Shown here: piece by piece, positions 3,381-35,016 of the stretch
How the letters are laid out: each line of letters starts with the position of its first letter
Numbering within the stretch: the first letter of the stretch is position 1
DNA from: a virus
Virus record (IMG/VR): IMGVR_UViG_3300036770_001816
Location: 1-35,016 of that record
Strand: one strand, 5' to 3'
Length of the DNA stretch: 35,016 nucleotides
Made by a program: the position numbers and the translations under genes
Notes under the pieces: model-generated
The model's input: only the letters and a program-made list of their open reading frames with translations
Database searches by the model: none
Told to the model about the DNA's origin: nothing

Positions 3381-5225
3381 TCAGACGTCCATCTTGACGC
3401 CGGCCTTGTCCTCGGCCTTGGCGACGCCGAAGTCAAAGAATCCGCGCATCTGGACGCCGAGCACGTTGAAGTCCGCCTCGGCCGTCTCGACCACCGGGCT
3501 CTGCACGCCGTTGAGGAACGCAACCTCCATCACCGGCAAATCGCTCGGCGACGCGAGGAGGTAGTAGTCCGCCGTGTTGGTGAGGTAGGTCGAGGAGACC
3601 ACCTCGTACCGACCGGCGAAAACGTTCGTCGACGGCTGGCCGCCGGTCGCACCGGACGAGATCTGGACGCTGTTCATGAGCTCGGCGGCCGTGATCTCGA
3701 GGTCGACCGGGACGAGCAGCACTCGCGGCTGCACCGCCATCGGATGACCGTCGGGATCCGTCAGCTTCCGGTACAGCGTCAGGGCCTCCTTGAGACCGGC
3801 CAAGCCGAGAGCCGTGGCGGAGGTCTTCTTGTTGCCCTTGGCGGTCGTGAAGAACGCGCTGTCGTCGAGGAACGCCGTCCAGAAGACGGAGTTGAGCTTG
3901 AGCGCGCCGCCACGACCGATCCGCTGCGGGACCGCGGTAAGAGCACCGAGATCGTCGTTGATCAGGTCGGTACGGGTGACCGAGGTCATGATCCCGTAGG
4001 TGTCCGCGCTGATCGTGCGGTTCTCGTCGCTCGCGGAAGCGTGCTTCAGCTCGCCACCGTTCTGCACCTCCTGGAACACAAAGCCGCCGTTGAGCCGGTA
4101 CTGCGTCACGGTCTTGAAGTCGTTGACGCTACGCACCGAGCTGATCGACCGCCACGCGTTCTCGACCGAGTCGAAGCCGGCGAGCAGGAACTTGTTGACC
4201 GTGCTCGACAGGATGTTCGCGATCGAGTGCGTCGACCACGCCGCCTGCAGAACCGGCCGCAGCGTCGCCGCCGAGAGCCGCCGCGGACCGTCGTAGCCGC
4301 CGGCCACGGCCGCCTGCAGCAGCACCTCACCGAGCGACAGGTCGCGGCGCGCCTTGTGGGCGGCCTCGAGCACCTGCGCGTCGTACTTCTTCTCGACGCC
4401 CGGCAGGTTGCCCTGCAGCGCGAACGAGGCCTCGATCACCTCGGCCGACGGCGGCGCGTAGGTGGTGACGTGCACGGCCGGCGAGGCCGGACGCTCGTCG
4501 CGAGCCGCCTGGAGCTTCTCCATGGTTTTGACCTTCTCGTCGAGGGCCTTGACCGTGGCGAGCAGCTCGCCGACGTCCGCGGCCGGTGTGGTGGTGACAG
4601 GCTCCACGGCGACCTCCGCCGTGGCCGCCACGGCCGGGGTCGACACGACCTCGTCCGTGGGCTTGGTGGTGGCGTCAGCAGCCGCCATGGTTTCCTCCTC
4701 GACGGCCTCTTCGGCCGCGATGGCGACGCTGGTCTCCGCGTCAGCGCCCAAGGTGACAAACGAGACCTCGCGGAGAGCGGAGGCCTTGACGATGCGGACA
4801 GGCCCCATGTGGGTCTGCCCGTTTGCGGTGGCGACGGCGTCGGCGTCGACCTTCTGGTGGCGGCGGACGTCGGCGCCGACACTGGCCTGCCAGGCGTAGC
4901 CTCGCTCGGCCAGGGCGAGCACCTGGCGGGCCGTGTCGGTGTCGGCCATGATCTCGCCCTCGACGATCAGCTTGGATCCCTCGACGCGGACGCTGTCCGT
5001 CTGCCCGAGGATCGACCCGAGCCCGTAGTCGTGGCCGAGAACGATCGGAATCCGCTGCTTGGTTTGCATGCCGGCCAGGTCGATCACGACCGGCTCACGA
5101 CTCCATCCCTGACGGATCGGAGCGCCGGTGTAGGCCTCGATCGTGAACCGACGCGGGGAGGCCGCAGCCTCGCCATCGGCGGCCTGGAGAAACGTCACGC
5201 TGGTGTCGAGTTTGATGGTGTTCAT
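3381..5225 (-). CDS. Fused prohead protease and major capsid protein
   Basis: The product has 614 residues. Residues about 25 to 165 match the HK97-type (S78) prohead serine protease: GHDYGLG with likely catalytic His65, AWQASVGAD with likely nucleophile Ser115, then REVSFVTLGAD. A low-complexity Ala/Glu/Thr stretch and a short coiled coil (about 218-242, LLATVKALDEKVKTMEKL) form a scaffold-like delta region. The rest (about 260-614) is a major capsid protein; LINDDLGALTAVPQRIGRGG and the ending NVLGVQMRGFFDFG resemble Mu-like and HK97-fold capsids encoded as protease fusions. The protease should cut the scaffold region away during head maturation. The ATG overlaps the stop of a 17-residue reading frame (ATGA). 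The domain assignment is strong; the exact cleavage site cannot be seen. Confidence 0.92.
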   Translation of the reverse strand: MNTIKLDTSVTFLQAADGEAAASPRRFTIEAYTGAPIRQGWSREPVVIDLAGMQTKQRIPIVLGHDYGLGSILGQTDSVRVEGSKLIVEGEIMADTDTARQVLALAERGYAWQASVGADVRRHQKVDADAVATANGQTHMGPVRIVKASALREVSFVTLGADAETSVAIAAEEAVEEETMAAADATTKPTDEVVSTPAVAATAEVAVEPVTTTPAADVGELLATVKALDEKVKTMEKLQAARDERPASPAVHVTTYAPPSAEVIEASFALQGNLPGVEKKYDAQVLEAAHKARRDLSLGEVLLQAAVAGGYDGPRRLSAATLRPVLQAAWSTHSIANILSSTVNKFLLAGFDSVENAWRSISSVRSVNDFKTVTQYRLNGGFVFQEVQNGGELKHASASDENRTISADTYGIMTSVTRTDLINDDLGALTAVPQRIGRGGALKLNSVFWTAFLDDSAFFTTAKGNKKTSATALGLAGLKEALTLYRKLTDPDGHPMAVQPRVLLVPVDLEITAAELMNSVQISSGATGGQPSTNVFAGRYEVVSSTYLTNTADYYLLASPSDLPVMEVAFLNGVQSPVVETAEADFNVLGVQMRGFFDFGVAKAEDKAGVKMDV

Positions 5226-7135: not shown

Positions 7136-9288
7136 GCACCCATCCTTCGCAGCTCGATCTTGCGGACGGGCGCCGTCGGGATGGTGACCTTCTTTCGACG
7201 TTTGCCGCCAGCCTCGCTCGCCGCTGGCTGTAGCCCTGTGATGCTCGCCGCCACGGCCGAGCCGACGAGACAGTCCCACCAGTGGTTGTCGCGGCCGCTG
7301 ATCTTCCATTCGTCGACGACGCGGCCGCGGGCCTCGGTCCTCACAGGGAACTCGCTCGTGAGGTGCTCGAGCAGCAGGTCGTGGTCGCCTTGGTACAGCG
7401 TGATCGCCTCCGGGTCTCCGATGCCAAGACGCAGCCGCGCGGCGCAGAACGTCTTCCAGAAGTTGGCGTCGTAGAGCACTGACCTGTGGTCAGTGTCGCC
7501 GAGCTTGCCGATCCGCCAATTGAGCCCGACCTTGTCTCCTCGGTGCTTCTGCTTCTCGGTCAGCGGCTGACTCGACGCACCGATGCCGCGGCCGTGCGAC
7601 GGAAGCAGCTGGGCCGCGAAAGGCGACTGCTTGGCGAACGTGCGGACGACGGTGGTGGATTGCCCCCAGTTGGCGTCGACCAGCATCCGCTCAATCCGGA
7701 GCTTCGCCCCGTCCTCGCGCAGCCAGTCGCGGCCAAGCAGCAGCCGTGCCACCTCGTCGAGGCCGGCCCGCAGCGCACCTTCAAATCCGGCGTTGCCGGC
7801 GGCTCGTGCCAGCGTCTTCTTGGCGTGAGCCGCGTCGAAGAACGACACGCCCTGATCAGGGTACGTGCCGTAGGCCACGATGCGGCCGCCGAACGACTCA
7901 CCCCACGACGCCACCAGCCAAAAGAGCAGCTTTTCCTGCACGTCGACAAATGCGGTGAGCGCGTTGTGCCCGGACGGCACGATCGCTCGAGCTGGAGGTA
8001 CTACGCGCAGCGCGAGTCCGCGCTTGTCGAGCTTGTCCGACGCGATGTCGTCGGCCACCGGCTGGTTCTGGTACTCGGCAAAGAAAGCGTTTTCGCCGCG
8101 GTCGATCCGCAGGTTCCACGCGTGCTGCAGCGGCGACAGCTCGTCGTCGTGCTTGCGTGCCGGCCACGCCACCTTGGAGCCGGCATCCATGTCGGCTTGG
8201 TGCTCGGCATAGAACGCCGTGGCGGCATCGGTGCCGCTTCCGTCGCGCTGACCCTGACGACGCAGCTCGGCGTACTGCCCCCACAGGTCGTCACGCGTCG
8301 GCCACTCGTAGACCAGTGCCGTCCGCTCGCCCTGCCACGACGGGTGGCGGGCACGGTCGAGCAGCCGGTCAGCCAGGTCGTCCGGACGGATCACCGTGAT
8401 CGTGCACAGGCCGGCGATCTTAGCGCCCGGGCCGGCGAGGCCGAGGATGGCACCGGCCAGCACACGCTCGCGGGTGGCAACCTGCGATGGGCTGGCCGCC
8501 GACTCGTCAGTCTGTGGATCGTCGATGAGGACCAGCGACGGCCGCAGCGTCTTGCCGTCGGGCCGCGTGTGCTTGATGCCGCGTATGCGGCCGGTGATGC
8601 CGGCCACACGCACCGCCGCGCCGGCCGACGGTGCACCCGGAATCCAGGGCAGCGTGATCTGGTCGGCGGTCCACTCAATGTGCGTGGGCTTCCCACGGTA
8701 GGTCTGCCCGTTTGCCCGCTGGCTGATCCGGTCCAATCGGGCCACCGGGTAGCACACCTCTGGAAAGTCGGCCAGCAGCGTCTCGTTGTTTTCAATTTGC
8801 GACTTCAGGCTGTCGAGCATCGCATTGGCAATGGTCTGGTCGGCACCGATCAGCATCACGAACTGCCGGTGACCGTACAGCATCGCCCACAACGCCCCGG
8901 ACTCGCACAACGTGGTCTTGCCCGACCCGCGCGGCATGGCGAAGGCGAACAGCTCGCCGCGGATCACCGCCGCCTCGATCTTCGCGATCGCACGCAGGTG
9001 GTCGTCGGACCACGCCAGGCAGCACGCCTCGTGCATGTAGGTTTCGCAGAATAGCCGGAAGTTGTCGCGGCACGCCGCACGGCGTTTTGCGTCGGCCACT
9101 TCTGGCAGGTCGCCGATCTCGCGGCCCGCCTCCGACATGCGAGAGGACCGCTGGGCCATGCGGTCCTTGTGGTCGTCGTATGCGTCCCGGTCGCCACCCA
9201 GCCGGCGGCGAATCGCACGCACATCCCGCAACTGCTCACGCAGTTTTTTTTCAGCAGCGGCGGCCTTCTTGCGTGCGTCGTCGCTCAT
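7132..9288 (-). CDS. terL: Terminase large subunit
   Basis: This 718-residue packaging motor carries a Walker A motif PRGSGKTT at about 119-126 and a Walker B LVLIDDPQTD at about 252-260. The C-terminal half holds the nuclease-type acidic positions (AFVDVQEKLLFW, MLVDANWGQST, and the closing GRDNHWWDCLVG block typical of gpA-like terminases). The charged N-terminus (1-60) is a predicted coiled coil. The enzyme uses ATP to pump DNA through the portal and cuts it at the end of packaging. No separate small terminase was recognised in the window. An A8 run near codon 14 could cause slippage. The start overlaps the methyltransferase stop by four bases. Confidence 0.93.
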   Translation of the reverse strand: MSDDARKKAAAAEKKLREQLRDVRAIRRRLGGDRDAYDDHKDRMAQRSSRMSEAGREIGDLPEVADAKRRAACRDNFRLFCETYMHEACCLAWSDDHLRAIAKIEAAVIRGELFAFAMPRGSGKTTLCESGALWAMLYGHRQFVMLIGADQTIANAMLDSLKSQIENNETLLADFPEVCYPVARLDRISQRANGQTYRGKPTHIEWTADQITLPWIPGAPSAGAAVRVAGITGRIRGIKHTRPDGKTLRPSLVLIDDPQTDESAASPSQVATRERVLAGAILGLAGPGAKIAGLCTITVIRPDDLADRLLDRARHPSWQGERTALVYEWPTRDDLWGQYAELRRQGQRDGSGTDAATAFYAEHQADMDAGSKVAWPARKHDDELSPLQHAWNLRIDRGENAFFAEYQNQPVADDIASDKLDKRGLALRVVPPARAIVPSGHNALTAFVDVQEKLLFWLVASWGESFGGRIVAYGTYPDQGVSFFDAAHAKKTLARAAGNAGFEGALRAGLDEVARLLLGRDWLREDGAKLRIERMLVDANWGQSTTVVRTFAKQSPFAAQLLPSHGRGIGASSQPLTEKQKHRGDKVGLNWRIGKLGDTDHRSVLYDANFWKTFCAARLRLGIGDPEAITLYQGDHDLLLEHLTSEFPVRTEARGRVVDEWKISGRDNHWWDCLVGSAVAASITGLQPAASEAGGKRRKKVTIPTAPVRKIELRRMGA

Positions 9289-10535
9289 TCATTCGCCAGC
9301 GTGGCCTTCTTGCCCGTCAGCGTCTCCCACCGCTTCACGATCACGTCGCAATACTGCGGGCTAATCTCCATGCCGTAGCACTTGCGGCCCAGTTGCTCGG
9401 CGGCGATCAGCGTCGTGCCGGTTCCGCAGAATGGCTCGTAGACGCTCCTGGCCTGATCGCAGAGCGTTTGCATGACCCATGCTGGAACGTGTAGCGGCAT
9501 CGTCGCTGCGTGTACGTCCGAGAACTCGTTTTGTCTCTGCGGTGGCGCGACGTAGACGCTTTGGACTGTGCCCTTCCACGACGACAGCGGAACGGCCCTC
9601 GATGCGCCGTCGTTCGCGGCGAAAATAATCATCCATTCGTAGCGCGAAGCCATAACGCCGGCGGCCATCTGGGGCGCTGCATGTCCCTTGTCCCATGTTG
9701 CGACATCGACAAGCCGACCCGCATTGTCGGCGATGAACCGAACGAGGTCTCGCTTGTTGCCGGCGAGCGGCTGGACGTTTACGACCCATGCGTCCGAGAC
9801 AGCGACATCGCTCGCCGCGAACCAGGAAGCCATGAGCCCGCTCCACTCTGCGGCACTGTCTTCGTGGTCGTCGTATGCGTTTTTGTTTGCCGACATTTTC
9901 CTATTGCCAGACAATGCGACCGACTTTCCAAGGGCATACGGCGGCGACGTGAAGCATAGGTCCGCCTTTGCCCCCGCCATCAGCCGCTCGACATCCTCCG
10001 CCTTCGTCGAGTCGCCGCACAGCAGGCGATGCTCGCTGAGAATCCACAGGTCGCCCGGCTTCGTCATCGGATCGGCTGGCGGCTCGGGGATCTCGTCCTC
10101 GACGATCTCCTTCGTTTCGTCTTGGTACAGCCCGGCCTCGTCGGCCAGGTCCGCGAGCAGTTGCTGAACGTCGGGCGACCCGGTGTCGACCTCCCGCAGG
10201 ATCGCGTCCAGCTTGGCGGCGTCGGCCTCGGCCATCGCGGCCAGCGGGTCGAGGGTGGCCAGCACCTTGTCGGCCTCCGCCTCGTCGACGTCCAGCACCA
10301 GCACCGGGACCGTCTCGTCGCCCAGCGTCTCGGCCCGGAGGTGGCCGTCGATCAGCATGAGCGTCCCGTCGTCCAGCTCACGGGCGAGCACGGCGTCGGC
10401 GATGCCGACCTCGGCCAACAGCCCCTTGAGGGCGTTGGCTTGGGCCTCGGGGTGGGTCCGCCAGTTCTTGGGGTTAGGCCGCAGCTCGGACGCCGGCACC
10501 CGCCGCAGCTCGCGGATTCGGTCACGGATCTTCAT
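9285..10535 (-). CDS. ParB-domain DNA methyltransferase
   Basis: The protein has 416 residues. The N-terminal 100 residues form a ParB/Srx-like domain with ELRPNPKNWRTHP and LIDGHLRAETLGD. Residues about 160-410 are a DNA amino-methyltransferase with the catalytic motif TSPPY at 196-200 and the AdoMet motif EPFCGTGTTLIAAEQLGRK at about 367-385. Because the catalytic motif precedes the AdoMet motif, this is a beta-type N6-adenine or N4-cytosine methyltransferase. ParB-methyltransferase fusions are common in phages and usually have no partner nuclease; they protect phage DNA from host restriction. None of its neighbours is a recognisable restriction enzyme. The 76-base gap upstream (10536-10611) is locally AT-rich and could hold a promoter, but none is clear. 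Confidence 0.9.
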   Translation of the reverse strand: MKIRDRIRELRRVPASELRPNPKNWRTHPEAQANALKGLLAEVGIADAVLARELDDGTLMLIDGHLRAETLGDETVPVLVLDVDEAEADKVLATLDPLAAMAEADAAKLDAILREVDTGSPDVQQLLADLADEAGLYQDETKEIVEDEIPEPPADPMTKPGDLWILSEHRLLCGDSTKAEDVERLMAGAKADLCFTSPPYALGKSVALSGNRKMSANKNAYDDHEDSAAEWSGLMASWFAASDVAVSDAWVVNVQPLAGNKRDLVRFIADNAGRLVDVATWDKGHAAPQMAAGVMASRYEWMIIFAANDGASRAVPLSSWKGTVQSVYVAPPQRQNEFSDVHAATMPLHVPAWVMQTLCDQARSVYEPFCGTGTTLIAAEQLGRKCYGMEISPQYCDVIVKRWETLTGKKATLANE

Positions 10536-11797: not shown

Positions 11798-12634
11798 TCA
11801 CGAGGCCTCCCGGCGTTTGGCGGCCAGCGCGGCCTCGGTGCGACGCACGGCGGCTGAGAACTCCGGGTCGAGCTGCCGCTTCGGCTGCTCGCCGGCCGCT
11901 CCACGCTCGGGCCTGGCGTCGTCGTACTGGCCGCCGAGCACCCGTCGCACGAAGCCGCTGCCGCAGAGCTGCACGAGGGTGGGCGGGGTTTTGAAATACC
12001 GGCACTTGGGCAGGTGGGCGATGGCCTGCACGGCCTCGTCCAGCCACCCGGGCTCCGCCAGACGCTCCTCAAGGCCGTCCGGGGGCTGCGGGTGCTTCCA
12101 CGGACGTCCCGGGCCGGCGTTCCACGCCGTCCGCAGCCGCTGCCAGCCGTCCTCGGTCTGCGCAGCCTCGCGCGGAGGAGGAGGAACTTCTTCTCTCCTC
12201 TCCTCTCCTCTGCGATGCGCGAGCGCCGGAACGTCCGATGCGCGCGCATCGGACGGTCCGATGGGGCGTTTTCGGGCCGGATTCCGGTCCTCGTACGACC
12301 GTGCCCGGTCGGCTTGCTGGGCTCTCGACTTGGCCGCCTGGCTGAACCGGCGGTCCCATCCGGGGACAGCAACGGTAGCGGCCGTCTCGTCGATCTCCAG
12401 CCACCCGACGGCCGCCACGGCTCGCCAGAAGGCATCGTCACCGCCGCACGTCCTGACAAGGCGTGGCAGCGTCATCCGAGCCACGCCGTCGTGGCAGTGC
12501 ATCGAGGCCCAGCCCCACAGCTGCAGGAGCCGGTAGACGACGACCTCGACCGGGTGACCGGTCTCGTCGATCAGCTCCTGCACCTCCGGCTTGGCCGGCA
12601 GGGCAAGGTCGTAGGCGATCCACTCACCGGCCAT
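11798..12634 (-). CDS. Phage replication protein (HTH N-terminus, lambda O-like layout)
   Basis: The product has 278 residues. Residues 1-110 look like the N-terminal winged-helix region of phage replisome organisers (VVVYRLLQLWGWASMH, then VARMTLPRLVRTCGG, WLEID, and the AVPGWDRRFSQAAKSRA block typical of such proteins). A charged, low-complexity linker (about 115-165) follows, then a C-terminal part that may contact the host helicase or loader. No polymerase or helicase was found in the window, so replication depends on the host and this is the likely initiator. GAGGAGG lies six bases before the ATG. DNA encoding the linker contains a palindrome and purine-rich tract that could be the origin. 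Confidence 0.65.
   Translation of the reverse strand: MAGEWIAYDLALPAKPEVQELIDETGHPVEVVVYRLLQLWGWASMHCHDGVARMTLPRLVRTCGGDDAFWRAVAAVGWLEIDETAATVAVPGWDRRFSQAAKSRAQQADRARSYEDRNPARKRPIGPSDARASDVPALAHRRGEERREEVPPPPREAAQTEDGWQRLRTAWNAGPGRPWKHPQPPDGLEERLAEPGWLDEAVQAIAHLPKCRYFKTPPTLVQLCGSGFVRRVLGGQYDDARPERGAAGEQPKRQLDPEFSAAVRRTEAALAAKRREAS
12174..12261. other. Candidate phage replication origin inside the replication gene
   Basis: A perfect 22-bp palindrome at 12232-12253 is followed at once by a third copy of its half site, so GTCCGATG or its complement occurs three times (12233-12240, 12245-12252, 12254-12261). Next to it, 12174-12211 is a strand-biased purine/pyrimidine tract with repeated CTCCT. 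Both lie in the linker-coding part of the replication gene, the position of the iteron-type origin in lambda gene O. Confidence 0.45.
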
Positions 12635-15020: not shown

Positions 15021-15242
15021 TCATGCAATTCGTGCTCCGTCCGGGAGTGCCTTGCCCATGTACAAGAGCTGCACGACGCCGTCCCGCTGCACGAGCTGGT
15101 AGTGGTGCAGCTGCCCGCTCCACGGCATGTCCAGCCTGGCCGGGTACTGCTCGCCACGCCTCGGCGTGTACGGCATCCCGTCCCACGGACCGCCGTAGAA
15201 CTGGATGGTGCGGTCGTCGTCAAAAAGGGATGTCGTCGGCAT
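15021..15242 (-). CDS. Small unknown protein with a FYGGPWDG motif
   Basis: The ATG at 15242 has GGAG seven bases upstream and lies inside the end of the SSB-like gene, giving 73 residues. The core (IQFYGGPWDGMPYTPRRGEQYP, then HHYQLVQRDGVVQLLYMG) resembles short conserved phage proteins of unknown function seen beside SSB-like genes. It is likely a small beta-rich protein. An upstream ATG at 15266 would add eight residues. Confidence 0.55.
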   Translation of the reverse strand: MPTTSLFDDDRTIQFYGGPWDGMPYTPRRGEQYPARLDMPWSGQLHHYQLVQRDGVVQLLYMGKALPDGARIA

Positions 15243-15717
15243 CGGACCGCTCCTGGAACTCCGCATGCGTCTTCGCGGCCGGCGTCCTGGCCGGCGCCCG
15301 CTTCGGCTTGGCCTCAGCCGGCTTTTGCGTTGACGCGTGCCACCGCGTCACGCGTGCATACTCCTTGCCGTTCTGGTTCTGCTTGTATTCCACGTCCACG
15401 GTGACCGTTCGTCCGACGAGCGTGCGCTCGTCCCAGTCATCGCCACGCTTCGGCGGCGCAACGCCTGCGGCGCGACAGACCGCCTCGATCTTTCCACGCC
15501 ACGTAACCGAGATCGGGACTTTCACCTCGTAAAAGCCCTGCTTGCCAAACTTCACCACAAGACACCGACCAGCCTGGTTGTCATCCGACACCATGTACGG
15601 CGCCGTCTCCTCTTCTGCGTACGTGATCTCGCCCGTGTGTGTGCCGGCTGGAAGCATCTGCGTGTGCCCGTGATCAACGCCCGACACGCTGTCATCTGGC
15701 CATTCATCGAATCTCAT
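15220..15717 (-). CDS. Single-stranded DNA-binding-like protein
   Basis: The protein has 165 residues. A beta-rich body (about 20-120: YMVSDDNQAGRCLVVKF, GFYEVKVPISVTWRGKIEAVC, LVGRTVTVDVEYKQNQNGKEYARV) is followed by a Pro/Ala/Lys linker and an acidic tail ending DADDIPF, the protein-interaction tail typical of SSBs. It lies directly before a 65-residue gene and the Sak4-type ATPase in the transcript, and Sak4 proteins commonly work with a phage SSB. It should coat single-stranded DNA during phage recombination. OB-fold identity is inferred from the pattern. Confidence 0.65.
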   Translation of the reverse strand: MRFDEWPDDSVSGVDHGHTQMLPAGTHTGEITYAEEETAPYMVSDDNQAGRCLVVKFGKQGFYEVKVPISVTWRGKIEAVCRAAGVAPPKRGDDWDERTLVGRTVTVDVEYKQNQNGKEYARVTRWHASTQKPAEAKPKRAPARTPAAKTHAEFQERSDADDIPF

Positions 15718-15911
15718 GACTTCACCTCCGGCTCGTGTGCTTTCCCCACCCTGACGCGGAGCGGCTCCAGCAGCTCCCGCACATGCTCGACAGCCTTCGT
15801 GCCCGAGATTCGGCGGACGTGCCACCGCCGCACCACCTCGGCCACCTGCTGCATCAGCTCCTCCGACTCGGCCCGCTTGGCGGTCCACGGCGGCACGTCA
15901 TGCCACGCCAT
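15714..15911 (-). CDS. Small unknown protein, 65 residues
   Basis: This is a short, mostly helical, basic protein (EELMQQVAEVVRRWHVRRI, then KAVEHVRELLEPLRVRVGK). It overlaps the ATPase gene upstream by 14 bases and the SSB-like gene downstream by four. No family is recognised. Its place between two recombination genes suggests an accessory role there. Confidence 0.55.
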   Translation of the reverse strand: MAWHDVPPWTAKRAESEELMQQVAEVVRRWHVRRISGTKAVEHVRELLEPLRVRVGKAHEPEVKS

Positions 15912-16827
15912 CGGTCACCCCCTGCGGCTCGATGGCGTCGTGCCGCTCCTTGACCAGAACTGTCAAAGCCTCGCCCTGCTCGGCCGTCAGTTGGCCGTCC
16001 GAGAGCAGTGCGTCGATGCGGTCAGAAATCTTGCCGAGCGTCCGCACGCTCTTGGCCTCGGCGATGTACCGCACCACCTGGTCGTACAGCTCGGTGTCGA
16101 TCGGTCTGGCCCCGGTGCCGGTGAACAGCGGGGCGAGCGCGTCGATCGTCATGGGCAGCTGCTCGTCGAGGCCAAAACGGTTCTTGGCGTCCCACGATGC
16201 TGACCTTTCCGCGTGGATGATCCGCTCCTTGCCGCCGATTGCCTTTTTGCGGCCGTCGGTGCCCTCGACCACGCGGGTCCGGAAGTTGCAGAACAGCAGC
16301 GCGTCGCACCATTCCTTGAACAGCGACACCACCCGCTTTTGCAGACGCAGCTCGTACCTGTCGTAGCCGTCGGTCTGGTCAGGCGGAGAGAACCGCTTGA
16401 CGTCGCTGTGACCAATGAGCACCACGTGCAGGCCTGCCGCATGTAGGTTGTCGAGGTTCTCCACGAACCGGGCCATGTGTTCCGCGAGGATCACGATGCC
16501 CTTGCCGTATGAGTAGTCTTCCAGCGACGACTTGCCGTCCTTCTTGCACTGCCACTTGCCGCACAAACTCTCGGCCCAGTCGATGCTGTCGATGACGACG
16601 GTCTGGTAGCCATCAGGGTTGTCGACCGCCAGCTCCGTGACGGCCGCCTTGAGTGACTCCCAGTCTTTGCACCGCACACGCTCAACGTCGAAGTTGGCCG
16701 TTCCGTCCTCGACGTCGAGGAAAAGCGGGCGCGGCCATTGCGATGCCAGCGTCGTCTTGCCGATCGACTCCACACCGTAGAGCACCGTCTTTGTCGGCCG
16801 CTTCTGTCGTCCTTTCACGATCTTCAC
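15898..16827 (-). CDS. Sak4-type RecA-like ATPase (phage recombinase)
   Basis: The GTG at 16827 overlaps the CsrA stop (GTGA) and gives 309 residues. A Walker A motif GVESIGKTT lies at about 18-26, right after a basic start, followed by LFLDVEDGTANFD and a Walker B TVVIDSIDWAESL at about 76-88. This compact layout, with DVED after the first strand and a C-terminal helical part, matches the Sak4 family of phage single-strand annealing ATPases (often annotated 'AAA, ATP-binding'). It should promote homologous recombination with the SSB-like protein. The same frame continues upstream to 17145 but that part is antisense-like and not used. Confidence 0.82.
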   Translation of the reverse strand: MKIVKGRQKRPTKTVLYGVESIGKTTLASQWPRPLFLDVEDGTANFDVERVRCKDWESLKAAVTELAVDNPDGYQTVVIDSIDWAESLCGKWQCKKDGKSSLEDYSYGKGIVILAEHMARFVENLDNLHAAGLHVVLIGHSDVKRFSPPDQTDGYDRYELRLQKRVVSLFKEWCDALLFCNFRTRVVEGTDGRKKAIGGKERIIHAERSASWDAKNRFGLDEQLPMTIDALAPLFTGTGARPIDTELYDQVVRYIAEAKSVRTLGKISDRIDALLSDGQLTAEQGEALTVLVKERHDAIEPQGVTDGVA

Positions 16828-17033
16828 TTCACGTCCTCCTCTTGAGTTGGTTCGTCTTCGTCCCATTGGTCCATCGCGATCCGATCGAAAACCTCGCCGC
16901 GGAAGATGTCGACACGCTGTGGCGCTCTGAACGCCAGGCGGACGACATTGCCCCTGATCTCCTGCACCACGATCTCCATCCGTGCATACGGCACGACGAC
17001 ACGCTCGCCCTCCGCTCGCGTGAGCACTAGCAC
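16824..17033 (-). CDS. csrA: Phage-encoded CsrA/RsmA homologue
   Basis: This 69-residue protein matches CsrA from end to end: it starts LVLTRAEGERVVV, followed by IVVQEIRGNVVRLAFRAP and VDIFRGEVFDRI. Family RNA-binding positions are kept at Leu4, Arg6 and Arg45 (Arg44 in E. coli); Ala7 replaces the usual Arg or Lys and Gly46 replaces Glu. The last 12 residues are very acidic. CsrA dimers bind GGA-containing loops around start codons and repress translation or change mRNA stability, so this copy may retarget the host's global post-transcriptional network or time phage genes. The GTG start follows a very strong AAGGAGGG site. It begins the operon that includes the Sak4 and SSB-like genes. Confidence 0.85.
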   Translation of the reverse strand: MLVLTRAEGERVVVPYARMEIVVQEIRGNVVRLAFRAPQRVDIFRGEVFDRIAMDQWDEDEPTQEEDVK

Positions 17034-17047: not shown

Positions 17048-17098
17048 TGCGGCCGGCCGCACTCCGTCACGACCGACCGCAAACAAAACCATCCGTGA

Positions 17099-17452
17099 TC
17101 AGGCCAGCGATCCGTCGCCGACCTCGCGTCCCTGCGTATCGCCATCGACGAAGAGTGACTCGCCGCGCTCCGCGCGACGACACATCTCCTCGACCTTGTC
17201 TGGTGTGCCCGGCGCGGCCGTCGTCGGCTCCGCGGCGTCCATGGTCGCGCCGATCTCGTCGCGCACCTCGATCAACTCGTCGATCGTCACCGTGAGCGCG
17301 TCGTAGAGCAGCGTCCGGTCGCCGCGAGCCGCGCGGGCCTGGTACGTCTCGCCAGCGTTGGACTGCCCGCCAGCCTTCGACGGGTCGCCGTAGAGCCGCA
17401 CGATGGCGCACAGATGCGCGTGGCAGCGCGCCACGCGGTGCAGCCACGTCAC
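17099..17452 (-). CDS. Unknown helical protein, 117 residues
   Basis: The GTG at 17452 overlaps the upstream stop (GTGA). The protein starts with TWLHRVARCHAHLCAIVRLYGDP, then a helical LLYDALTVTIDELIEVRDEIG stretch and an acidic end. No family is recognised. The frame is open further upstream to an ATG at 17773 with GGAGG eight bases before it, but the extra sequence is glycine/arginine-rich and lies over a better HTH frame, so the short form is preferred. The 65-base gap before csrA has no promoter I can support. Confidence 0.5.
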   Translation of the reverse strand: MTWLHRVARCHAHLCAIVRLYGDPSKAGGQSNAGETYQARAARGDRTLLYDALTVTIDELIEVRDEIGATMDAAEPTTAAPGTPDKVEEMCRRAERGESLFVDGDTQGREVGDGSLA

Positions 17453-17754
17453 GAGAAGTTGGCAAGCCCGAGATCGGATGCGTGTACGACGGTTACGCTC
17501 GCTCGCCGCAGCCCGGCTCTCCTGCGCCGCTCCTGCTCGGACCAGCGCGACTGCACCTCCAACGACCGCTGGCGTATGGTCGCCTCGTCCGGGTCCTTGG
17601 GGCCTGGCCGAGGGTCCGTCCAGCCGAGCGCCCGTAGCCGGCGCGAGATCAACGAGGTAGTCGACGCCGTAATTGCGGCGATGCGCTCCAAGGGCATATC
17701 CGCCGCCCACTCGAGCAGCTGCGTATCCGTGACGTGCGCGAATCCGTGGCCCAT
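17449..17754 (-). CDS. Small HTH protein, first gene of the leftward early operon
   Basis: The protein has about 101 residues. A helix-turn-helix is visible: DTQLLEWAADMPLERIAAITASTTSLISRRLRALGW, followed by PDEATIRQRSLEVQSRWSEQERRRR. The same arrangement of an HTH followed by an RxxEIQxxWSExERxRR-like segment occurs in small phage-associated proteins. It may regulate early transcription. The start is uncertain: no good ribosome binding site serves ATG 17754, and GTG 17763 or GTG 17793 are alternatives. It is the first gene after the promoter at 17818-17846. Confidence 0.6.
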   Translation of the reverse strand: MGHGFAHVTDTQLLEWAADMPLERIAAITASTTSLISRRLRALGWTDPRPGPKDPDEATIRQRSLEVQSRWSEQERRRRAGLRRASVTVVHASDLGLANFS

Positions 17755-33395: not shown

Positions 33396-33841
33396 CAGCG
33401 GAACGTCCTGTAGGTGGCGGTGATGACCGCCCGCCACACGTTGCGGTCGTGCAACGCGTCGTCAGGGTTCACCTCGATCGCGACCTCGACCGGCGTGGTG
33501 ACGCCGCTGGGCCAGACGACCGCCTGGTCCCAAGTGTGTGCCCGGATCGCGTCCGCGATCTCTTCCGCCAGGTCGAGCATGTCGTCGGCCATCTCGTCCG
33601 ACGGCGTGTGCCGGCCGACGAACACCACGGCCTGGTAGTCGTACTGGTGGTGCGTGCGGTCGACTCGCTCGATCGTCAACGTGCCAGGCATGACCGCGAT
33701 GACCGGATCGACCATCTCCTCGATGGTGTAGTCCGGCCAGTTGACTCGCTCGACGGCCGGCTGCGTCGCCACCGACGTGAACGTCTCGGCGTCGAGTCCG
33801 TCGGCAAGAGCGTCGGCAATCTCACGCAGCGTGCTGCTCAT
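33395..33841 (-). CDS. Tail terminator or minor tail protein (gpU-like)
   Basis: This 148-residue protein has a helical start (LREIADALADGLDAETF), a beta body (YDYQAVVFVGRHTP), a helix with DEMADDMLDLAEEIADAIRAH and a closing strand NVWRAVITATYRTF. This alternation is usual for gpU-like tail terminators that cap the tail tube. The upstream glycosyltransferase gene overlaps it by 20 bases. The specific name rests on position as well as pattern. Confidence 0.6.
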   Translation of the reverse strand: MSSTLREIADALADGLDAETFTSVATQPAVERVNWPDYTIEEMVDPVIAVMPGTLTIERVDRTHHQYDYQAVVFVGRHTPSDEMADDMLDLAEEIADAIRAHTWDQAVVWPSGVTTPVEVAIEVNPDDALHDRNVWRAVITATYRTFR

Positions 33842-34868
33842 GGGCCTCGATCTGCTCCACGTTCTTGACCAGCCGCGGGTCGTCCGGGCATCGTCGCACA
33901 GCCTCGCGGGCGTACTGCAGGGCTTGTGGGTGCTTGCCTAGATTCCACGCAGCCACGGCCGCCAGGTCGTAGGCTCGTGTCATGGCGTCCGGGTCGGTGG
34001 CGTGCGTCGACTCGCCTGTGGCCTGCATGGCCGCCTCCGCAAACGTCAGGCACTCCTGCCACTCCTGCCGCTGGTAGTGCACCCACGCCAGCTGCTGCCA
34101 CGCGTCGGGCTCCGCCTTCGCCTCGTAGGCCGCTCGGTGCAGGTGCCGCTCGTCCTGCGTCAGCCGGTACAGGGCTCGGTAGGCGTACGACCGCTCGGTC
34201 GGCGTGCCCGGCAGGCCGAGGTAGTGGGCGAACGTCGCCGCCGCGGCCGGGTGCCCGACCCATTCCTGCTCGCGGGCGAGGTACCAGTGAGCGCGGGCGT
34301 CGTGCGGCGCCTCGCGGACCGCAACCTCGAGCAGCTCGAGGTCCGTCTTATGCCGCTTGCCTGGCGTCCGGTGGTGGTGGATCTCGAGACCGTCGGCGAC
34401 GGCCTGCACCTTCTCGCCCGACCAGCACACGAGCCCCTCGTGCGTCGGTGCCGACCACCGGAAGCCGCGGCGGGCGTGGACGCGGTCCGACAGGAAGACC
34501 AGCCCGGGCACGCCGGGCGACTTCCACGACCACACGTACCGATACCGCAGGTTGTTGACGTTGCCCGTCCACGCCCGCTCGATTGCCTCACGCCACCCGG
34601 GCTGCAGCCGCTCGTCGAGGTCCAGCCGCACGCACACGTCCACGTCGTCCGGCAGGTGGTACAGCGACAGGTTGTGCGCGTCGTCCCACCGCCACGGGAT
34701 CACGTTGCCGGTCATCACCGTGATGCCGCAGGACCGCAGACGCTGCGGGGTTGAGTCGGTCGACCCGGTGTCCGTGACGATCACCACGTCGGCGCCGTCG
34801 GTCGACTCCGCCCAGTCGATCGCGTGGGACTCCTCGTTCCTGGCCAGCGCGTAGATGCCGATTTTCAC
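33822..34868 (-). CDS. Family 2 glycosyltransferase with TPR-like C-terminus
   Basis: The GTG at 34868 overlaps the methyltransferase stop (GTGA) and gives 348 residues. The N-terminal half is a GT-A fold: IYALARNEESH, VIVTDTGSTDST with Asp33, and the DxD-type RLDLDER at 81-87. The C-terminal 150 residues have repeated helical pairs (YLAREQEWVGHPAAAATFAHYL, WVHYQRQEWQECLTFAEAAM, AAVAAWNLGKHPQALQYARE), like TPR units of protein-glycosylating enzymes that hold the acceptor. It probably glycosylates a phage or cell-surface protein; the collagen-like fibre is the attractive acceptor. Confidence 0.85.
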   Translation of the reverse strand: MKIGIYALARNEESHAIDWAESTDGADVVIVTDTGSTDSTPQRLRSCGITVMTGNVIPWRWDDAHNLSLYHLPDDVDVCVRLDLDERLQPGWREAIERAWTGNVNNLRYRYVWSWKSPGVPGLVFLSDRVHARRGFRWSAPTHEGLVCWSGEKVQAVADGLEIHHHRTPGKRHKTDLELLEVAVREAPHDARAHWYLAREQEWVGHPAAAATFAHYLGLPGTPTERSYAYRALYRLTQDERHLHRAAYEAKAEPDAWQQLAWVHYQRQEWQECLTFAEAAMQATGESTHATDPDAMTRAYDLAAVAAWNLGKHPQALQYAREAVRRCPDDPRLVKNVEQIEAHEQHAA

Positions 34869-35016
34869 GAGCCGCCCCACGTGTAGATAGTGTCGTGCGG
34901 CAGCCGCTCCGCGACGGCGTAACCGTGTGCCGTGAACCACGCGTGCACGTCGGCGGACGTGTGGCCGTAGCGCGTCTCGTTGCCGATCGTCTCGACGACC
35001 ACCGCCGGCCTGTGCA
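34865..35016 (-). CDS. C-terminus of an FkbM-like methyltransferase (5' part off the right edge)
   Basis: Only the last 49 residues are in the window: HRPAVVVETIGNETRYG, ADVHAWFTAHGYAVAERL and DTIYTWGGS. The pattern of a VVVE strand, a glycine-rich turn, a helix with a GY-V-ER end and a final strand is that of the end of FkbM-type SAM-dependent methyltransferases, which often methylate sugars. Its stop overlaps the glycosyltransferase start, so the two are probably coupled. Confidence 0.6.
   Translation of the reverse strand, partial: HRPAVVVETIGNETRYGHTSADVHAWFTAHGYAVAERLPHDTIYTWGGS

What the first reader, a model, noticed from the sequence alone, without database searches (positions are those of the whole stretch)
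16824..17033. Phage-encoded CsrA homologue at the head of the recombination operon
Full-length match to the CsrA family with main RNA-binding positions kept (Leu4, Arg6, Arg45) but Ala7 and Gly46 altered and a very acidic tail added. CsrA is a global regulator of carbon use, motility and biofilm. A phage copy could reprogram host translation during infection or lysogeny, or time phage genes by binding GGA sites over ribosome binding sites.
Basis: partly seen in the sequence, partly recalled or inferred. Interest (0 to 1): 0.75.

Follow-up and report, generated by a model that had tools for sequence, protein, structure and literature searches.

The report
Phage CsrA behind GGA-hairpin leader RNA
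A phage that probably infects planctomycete bacteria carries its own copy of the bacterial RNA-binding regulator CsrA, and the messenger RNA just in front of it carries a conserved row of hairpins shaped like CsrA landing sites, which suggests that CsrA controls the phage's DNA-recombination genes rather than being only a stolen tool for rewiring the host.

Summary
Confirmed: 16824-17033 (minus strand, GTG start) encodes a 69-aa CsrA-family protein (Pfam CsrA E=7e-14; AlphaFold model matches CsrA/RsmA/RsmE structures), under purifying selection (dN/dS 0.14), with L4, R6 and R45 kept. It overlaps sak4 by 4 nt. Phage csrA genes were already known. The ~100 nt before csrA hold hairpins with GGA in the loop (two ANGGAN hexaloops on 9- and 14-bp stems, two weaker sites, plus the Shine-Dalgarno GGA). 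The stems covary across divergent relatives while GGA stays. Relatives with a small gene between csrA and sak4 carry a different, also covarying, array; several csrA-less relatives carry such an array directly before sak4. The arrays are strand-specific (loops: GGA 30/40, TCC 0/40). They are absent from unrelated csrA phages and from 25 distant same-phylum sak4 loci. Best reading: the leader is a CsrA target that puts the recombination operon under CsrA translational control, by the phage's own CsrA (autoregulation) or by host CsrA where csrA is missing. Host reprogramming and CsrA titration are not excluded; binding is untested. The acidic tail is lineage-specific. New variant of a known kind.

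The parts
16824..17033 (-). csrA-family gene, 69 aa, GTG start
   Evidence: dN/dS 0.135 among 15 distinct close copies
15898..16827 (-). sak4: ATPase/ssDNA-annealing recombinase; its GTG start overlaps the csrA stop (GTGA), so probably translationally coupled
   Evidence: PHROG 124 E=7e-46, Pfam AAA_24 2e-47; overlap read
16833..16841 (-). GAGGAGGAC: Shine-Dalgarno of sak4 inside the csrA tail codons (encodes EED); also holds GGA
17048..17081 (-). Hairpin D: 14-bp stem, hexaloop ACGGAG (17067-17062), between upstream ORF and csrA
   Evidence: stem covaries, loop GGA invariant in 20 sequences
17101..17124 (-). Hairpin B: 9-bp stem, hexaloop ACGGAT (17115-17110), at the 3' end of the upstream ORF
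   Evidence: 5 of 7 tested pairs with compensatory changes
17088..17099 (-). Site C: ATCACGGATGGT, weak 3-bp hairpin or linker GGA
   Evidence: GGA kept near this position in relatives; stem not tested
17125..17136 (-). Site A: CGCAGGGACGCG, 3-bp stem, GGA in loop
17038..17046 (-). csrA Shine-Dalgarno CAAGGAGGG, itself holding AAGGA
17160..17180 (-). Further GGA-loop hairpin TCGTCGCG.CGGAG.CGCGGCGA inside the upstream ORF
   Evidence: conservation not tested
17099..17461 (-). Upstream ORF (about 120 aa, start uncertain); its 3' end carries hairpins A and B
   Evidence: no family; C-terminal ERGESLFVDGD is kept in relatives (read)
15220..15888 (-). Next gene of the operon, weak match to single-strand DNA-binding / DUF669
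   Evidence: PHROG 378 E=2e-4

Best explanation
The operon mRNA carries an array of CsrA target hairpins that ends at the ribosome binding site of its csrA or sak4 gene. Phage CsrA, made from the gene just downstream, binds the GGA loops as a dimer, covers the csrA Shine-Dalgarno and so limits its own translation and, through the GTGA overlap, that of sak4. This is negative autoregulation that sets the level and timing of the recombinase. In csrA-less relatives the same kind of array sits directly before sak4, where host CsrA would be the only candidate binder. Shown: protein family and fold, purifying selection, gene order and overlap, array structure by covariation, strand specificity, specificity to this phage clade. 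Inferred: binding, repression (rather than activation), coupling, and which CsrA binds.
For: GGA lies in 36 of 88 leader hairpin loops against 319 of 4023 elsewhere in the same loci; shuffles give mean 9.7, maximum 20 of 300. Direct-adjacent clade: 92.5% paired, 34 double-change cells against 11.3 shuffled (0/500), slid versions 20-54% paired. Gap clade: 91.3% paired, 34 against 11.8, slid 24-44%. csrA-less relatives: 23 GGA-loop hairpins before sak4, shuffles mean 3.75, maximum 11 of 500, and no csrA in their contigs of up to 34 kb. WC-only loops: GGA 30/40, TCC 0/40. Negative controls: unrelated csrA phages 8/98; 25 same-phylum sak4 loci with neither csrA nor array. The hexaloop ANGGAN is the known RsmE target, and E. 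coli CsrA represses itself through four leader sites, one on the SD (PMC7652899). csrA and sak4 distances correlate, r=0.46, p=2e-4, and csrA occurs in 41 of 61 sak4 loci.
Against: No binding or expression data. Three csrA-bearing lineages (L058, L081, L083) lack the array. Gap-clade arrays differ in register between subclades, so hairpin 2 of that clade was not counted. The structures counted were read from these same sequences, which inflates the comparison with slid versions. No promoter or terminator was recognised on this strand, so the transcript boundaries are unknown. The leader's fold as a whole is only moderately more stable than shuffles (z=-2.4). Rfam gives no match above threshold; RsmW at E=0.81 only.
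Confidence: 0.6

Rival explanations
1. Host takeover: phage CsrA acts mainly on host mRNAs (metabolism, motility, defence such as CRISPR-Cas), and the leader is only ordinary feedback.
For: Phage CsrA genes are proposed to manipulate hosts and suppress CRISPR-Cas (Campa et al. 2021, PMC8450108). Same-family genomes of the putative host group all carry csrA (72/72), so CsrA-responsive mRNAs should exist. Key RNA-binding residues are kept.
Against: csrA is tied to sak4 rather than to a moron region, over Sak4 divergence down to 48% identity, and csrA-less relatives keep the array, which a pure host-takeover gene would not predict. No host target was tested.
Confidence: 0.2
2. Sponge: the array, as leader or as a processed small RNA, titrates CsrA like CsrB/RsmZ, freeing host mRNAs; phage csrA is a buffer or a private regulator on top.
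For: Alternating hairpin and linker GGAs resemble RsmZ/CsrB; the weak best Rfam match is RsmW, a Csr-type sRNA, end to end. Arrays persist without phage csrA.
Against: Arrays end at a ribosome binding site; only about 4-7 sites per copy; no terminator or promoter for a separate RNA was recognised.
Confidence: 0.15
3. DNA-level inverted repeats (replication origin, recombination or protein-binding sites) unrelated to CsrA.
For: The site lies next to recombination genes; the stems are long.
Against: G-U pairs are common among the variants; loops are GGA on the mRNA strand only; arrays stop at the Shine-Dalgarno.
Confidence: 0.03

Closest known systems
CsrA/RsmA family (PF02599), including phage copies (PHROG 9500; 30 csrA+ phages in PMC7366521; IMG/VR survey in PMC8450108)
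   Same: Family profile, fold, L4/R6/R45; encoded by a phage
   Different: Below the equivalog cut-off; sits in a conserved csrA-sak4 operon with its own GGA-hairpin leader, which unrelated csrA phages lack
E. coli csrA leader autoregulation (four CsrA sites, one on the SD; PMC7652899)
   Same: Several GGA sites before csrA, one at the SD
   Different: In a phage, partly at the 3' end of an upstream gene, coupled to a recombinase, and retained where csrA is missing
CsrB/RsmZ-type Csr small RNAs
   Same: Rows of ANGGAN hexaloop hairpins with GGA linkers
   Different: Part of an mRNA leader ending at a ribosome binding site; no Rfam member; no sign of a separate transcript

Membership tests
CsrA/RsmA | Pfam CsrA above cut-off over full length | tested here: met
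   52 against 27 bits
CsrA/RsmA | CsrA fold | tested here: met
   pLDDT 87; Foldseek ranks 1-15 all CsrA/RsmA/RsmE, best ones rmsd about 1.2
CsrA/RsmA | RNA-binding residues L4, R6, R44 (R45 here) | tested here: met
   R6 and R45 invariant, L4 nearly so, in 29 phage CsrAs
CsrA/RsmA | NCBIfam equivalog score for canonical CsrA | tested here: not met
   48.9 against 73 bits
CsrA/RsmA | Dimer that binds GGA RNA | not testable with these tools
   Needs protein
csrA autoregulatory leader | Several GGA sites before csrA, one at the SD, in conserved structure | tested here: met
csrA autoregulatory leader | CsrA represses its own translation | not testable with these tools
   No expression data
CsrB/RsmZ sponge RNA | Array of GGA hairpin loops | tested here: met
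CsrB/RsmZ sponge RNA | Member of an Rfam Csr sRNA family | tested here: not met
   No gathering match; RsmW E=0.81
CsrB/RsmZ sponge RNA | Separate noncoding transcript with terminator | tested here: inconclusive
   No sigma-70 promoter or terminator recognised on this strand; no RNA data

The most novel reading that the evidence does not exclude
A phage clade carries its own Csr module: a CsrB/RsmZ-like RNA array built into the recombination operon that captures host CsrA (as sensor or sponge) to time recombination, with a phage csrA added or lost as a private regulator.
Probability: 0.25. Interest if true: 0.8.

Novelty: new variant of a known kind. Interest (0 to 1): 0.6.

Why it matters
Phage csrA genes are already known and are usually guessed to rewire the host; for most of them no target has been named. 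Here a conserved, covarying candidate target is found in the phage's own operon, and it persists in relatives without csrA. That makes the role of phage CsrA directly testable (leader reporter, GGA mutants), and suggests that the host Csr state, which reports nutrient status, can gate phage recombination.

Tried and rejected
Acidic tail as a functional feature: not conserved. Start-codon hairpin GGCCACGGATGGCC of the replication initiator (12642-12629) as a second CsrA target: kept only in near-identical relatives, changed or lost at about 65% identity, so left as a weak candidate. GGA-loop clusters elsewhere in the window reach the same count of four with relaxed 4-bp stems (12146 minus, 32611 plus), so count alone is not unique; stem length and covariation are. 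RNA model R1 in the putative host MAG: nothing convincing (best E=0.015). One of four host-MAG csrA leaders has a perfect GGA hairpin (L272) and another a hairpin further upstream (L275); too few to conclude. Rfam: no family.

Full report
1. The observation. The ORF at 16824-17033 is on the minus strand. It is a CsrA-family protein: Pfam CsrA E=7e-14, PHROG 9500, solved CsrA/RsmA chains E~3e-6, AlphaFold model pLDDT 87 with Foldseek ranks 1-15 all CsrA/RsmA/RsmE. It misses the NCBIfam equivalog cut-off. Among 15 distinct close copies dN/dS is 0.135, so the protein is under purifying selection. The window is a virus record with portal, capsid-protease, terminase, tape measure and integrase genes.

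2. Surroundings. The csrA stop overlaps the sak4 GTG start (GTGA). Sak4 is the ATPase/annealing recombinase (phrog_124), followed by a weak SSB/DUF669-like gene. Three same-strand ORFs lie upstream of csrA, so it is not the first gene. The acidic tail ends in EED because those codons are the sak4 Shine-Dalgarno; tail charge runs from -7 to +3 in relatives.

3. The csrA-sak4 pair is old. A scan with Sak4 gave loci down to 48% identity. Of 61 with at least 700 nt upstream, 41 have csrA: 18 directly before sak4 and 23 with one small ORF between; the labels cluster on the Sak4 tree and need several gains or losses. The CsrAs are 21-74% identical (median 35%) and their distances correlate with those of Sak4 (r=0.46, p=2e-4).

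4. The leader array. Before csrA the RNA holds GGA in hairpin loops. In the window: B (9 bp, ACGGAT) and D (14 bp, ACGGAG), weaker A and C, and the Shine-Dalgarno AAGGAGG. Over 22 divergent leaders, 36 of 88 hairpins carry GGA in the loop against 319 of 4023 elsewhere; shuffled leaders give mean 9.7, maximum 20. These lineages share ancestry, so the Fisher p is not a true probability; covariation is the better test. On 20 leaders of the direct-adjacent clade, helices B and D are 92.5% paired with 34 double-change cells (11.3 in shuffles, 0/500 as high), and slid versions fall to 20-54%. The gap clade has a differently arranged array whose first hairpin covaries equally. G-U variants are common, and on strict Watson-Crick hairpins GGA is in 30 of 40 loops and TCC in none: this is selection on the mRNA strand.

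5. csrA-less relatives keep it. An RNA model built from the direct clade also hit just upstream of sak4 in relatives without csrA. Direct inspection shows arrays of several GGA hairpins there: 23 against a shuffle mean of 3.75, maximum 11 of 500, with some compensatory changes. CsrA was not found anywhere in those contigs, up to 34 kb, but most records are fragments. L053/L054 are nested by Sak4 among csrA+ phages and still have an array. The most distant clade (L097, L103, L104) has neither csrA nor array.

6. Controls. Twenty-seven unrelated csrA-bearing viral loci show GGA in 8 of 98 leader hairpins, the background rate. Twenty-five sak4 loci from genomes of the putative host phylum (31-38% identity) have no csrA and almost no GGA hairpins. 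Three csrA+ lineages lack the array (L058, L081, L083), so the link is strong but not absolute.

7. Host. The portal hit one genome record, a MAG with 12 PSCyt2 domains (a planctomycete hallmark by my own knowledge; none in control genomes) and 4 csrA genes. In its phylum 41 of 392 genomes hold a relative of the portal, some on megabase contigs, and 72 of 72 genomes of its family carry csrA. Planctomycetota is therefore the likely host group; no other phylum was searched as a contrast, and the window's own host is not shown.

8. Mechanism. ANGGAN hexaloops are the high-affinity RsmE/CsrA target and E. coli CsrA represses its own translation through four leader sites, one on the SD (PMC7652899). 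By analogy phage CsrA should bind B and D and the SD region, repress csrA and, through the overlap, sak4. In csrA-less phages only host CsrA could do so. Binding, sign and coupling are inferred.

9. Literature. Phage csrA is not new: 30 csrA+ phages in PMC7366521, an IMG/VR survey with an anti-CRISPR proposal in PMC8450108, and a Vibrio phage in PMC12038007. I found no report of a GGA-hairpin array in a phage operon leader, but only open-licence PMC papers were searchable.

Noticed in passing
window 12642-12629 (-): GGCCACGGATGGCC hairpin with ACGGAT loop over the start codon of the replication-initiator gene (11798-12634); kept in near-identical relatives, lost or changed further out.
   Followed up: partly
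window 9285-10535 (-): ParB-like N-terminal part fused to a DNA methyltransferase.
   Followed up: no
window 3381-5225 (-): S78-type prohead protease fused to major capsid protein in one 614-aa ORF.
   Followed up: no
window 33822-34940 (-): Strong match to a phage beta-1,4-glycosyltransferase family (phrog_13126, E=6e-75).
   Followed up: no
L053, L054 against L050: Nearly identical Sak4 but the upstream csrA module is swapped for another gene, with a GGA array still in front of sak4.
   Followed up: partly
L062, L063, L064, L067, L073 upstream of sak4: Predicted membrane-protein-like ORF replaces csrA; its 3' codons lie on top of the GGA array and give an odd Cys/Gly/Arg-rich tail.
   Followed up: no
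L239:1201-1258, L062:2289-2346: Truncated tRNA-like matches (Rfam, E~1e-3) in two relatives of this phage group.
   Followed up: no
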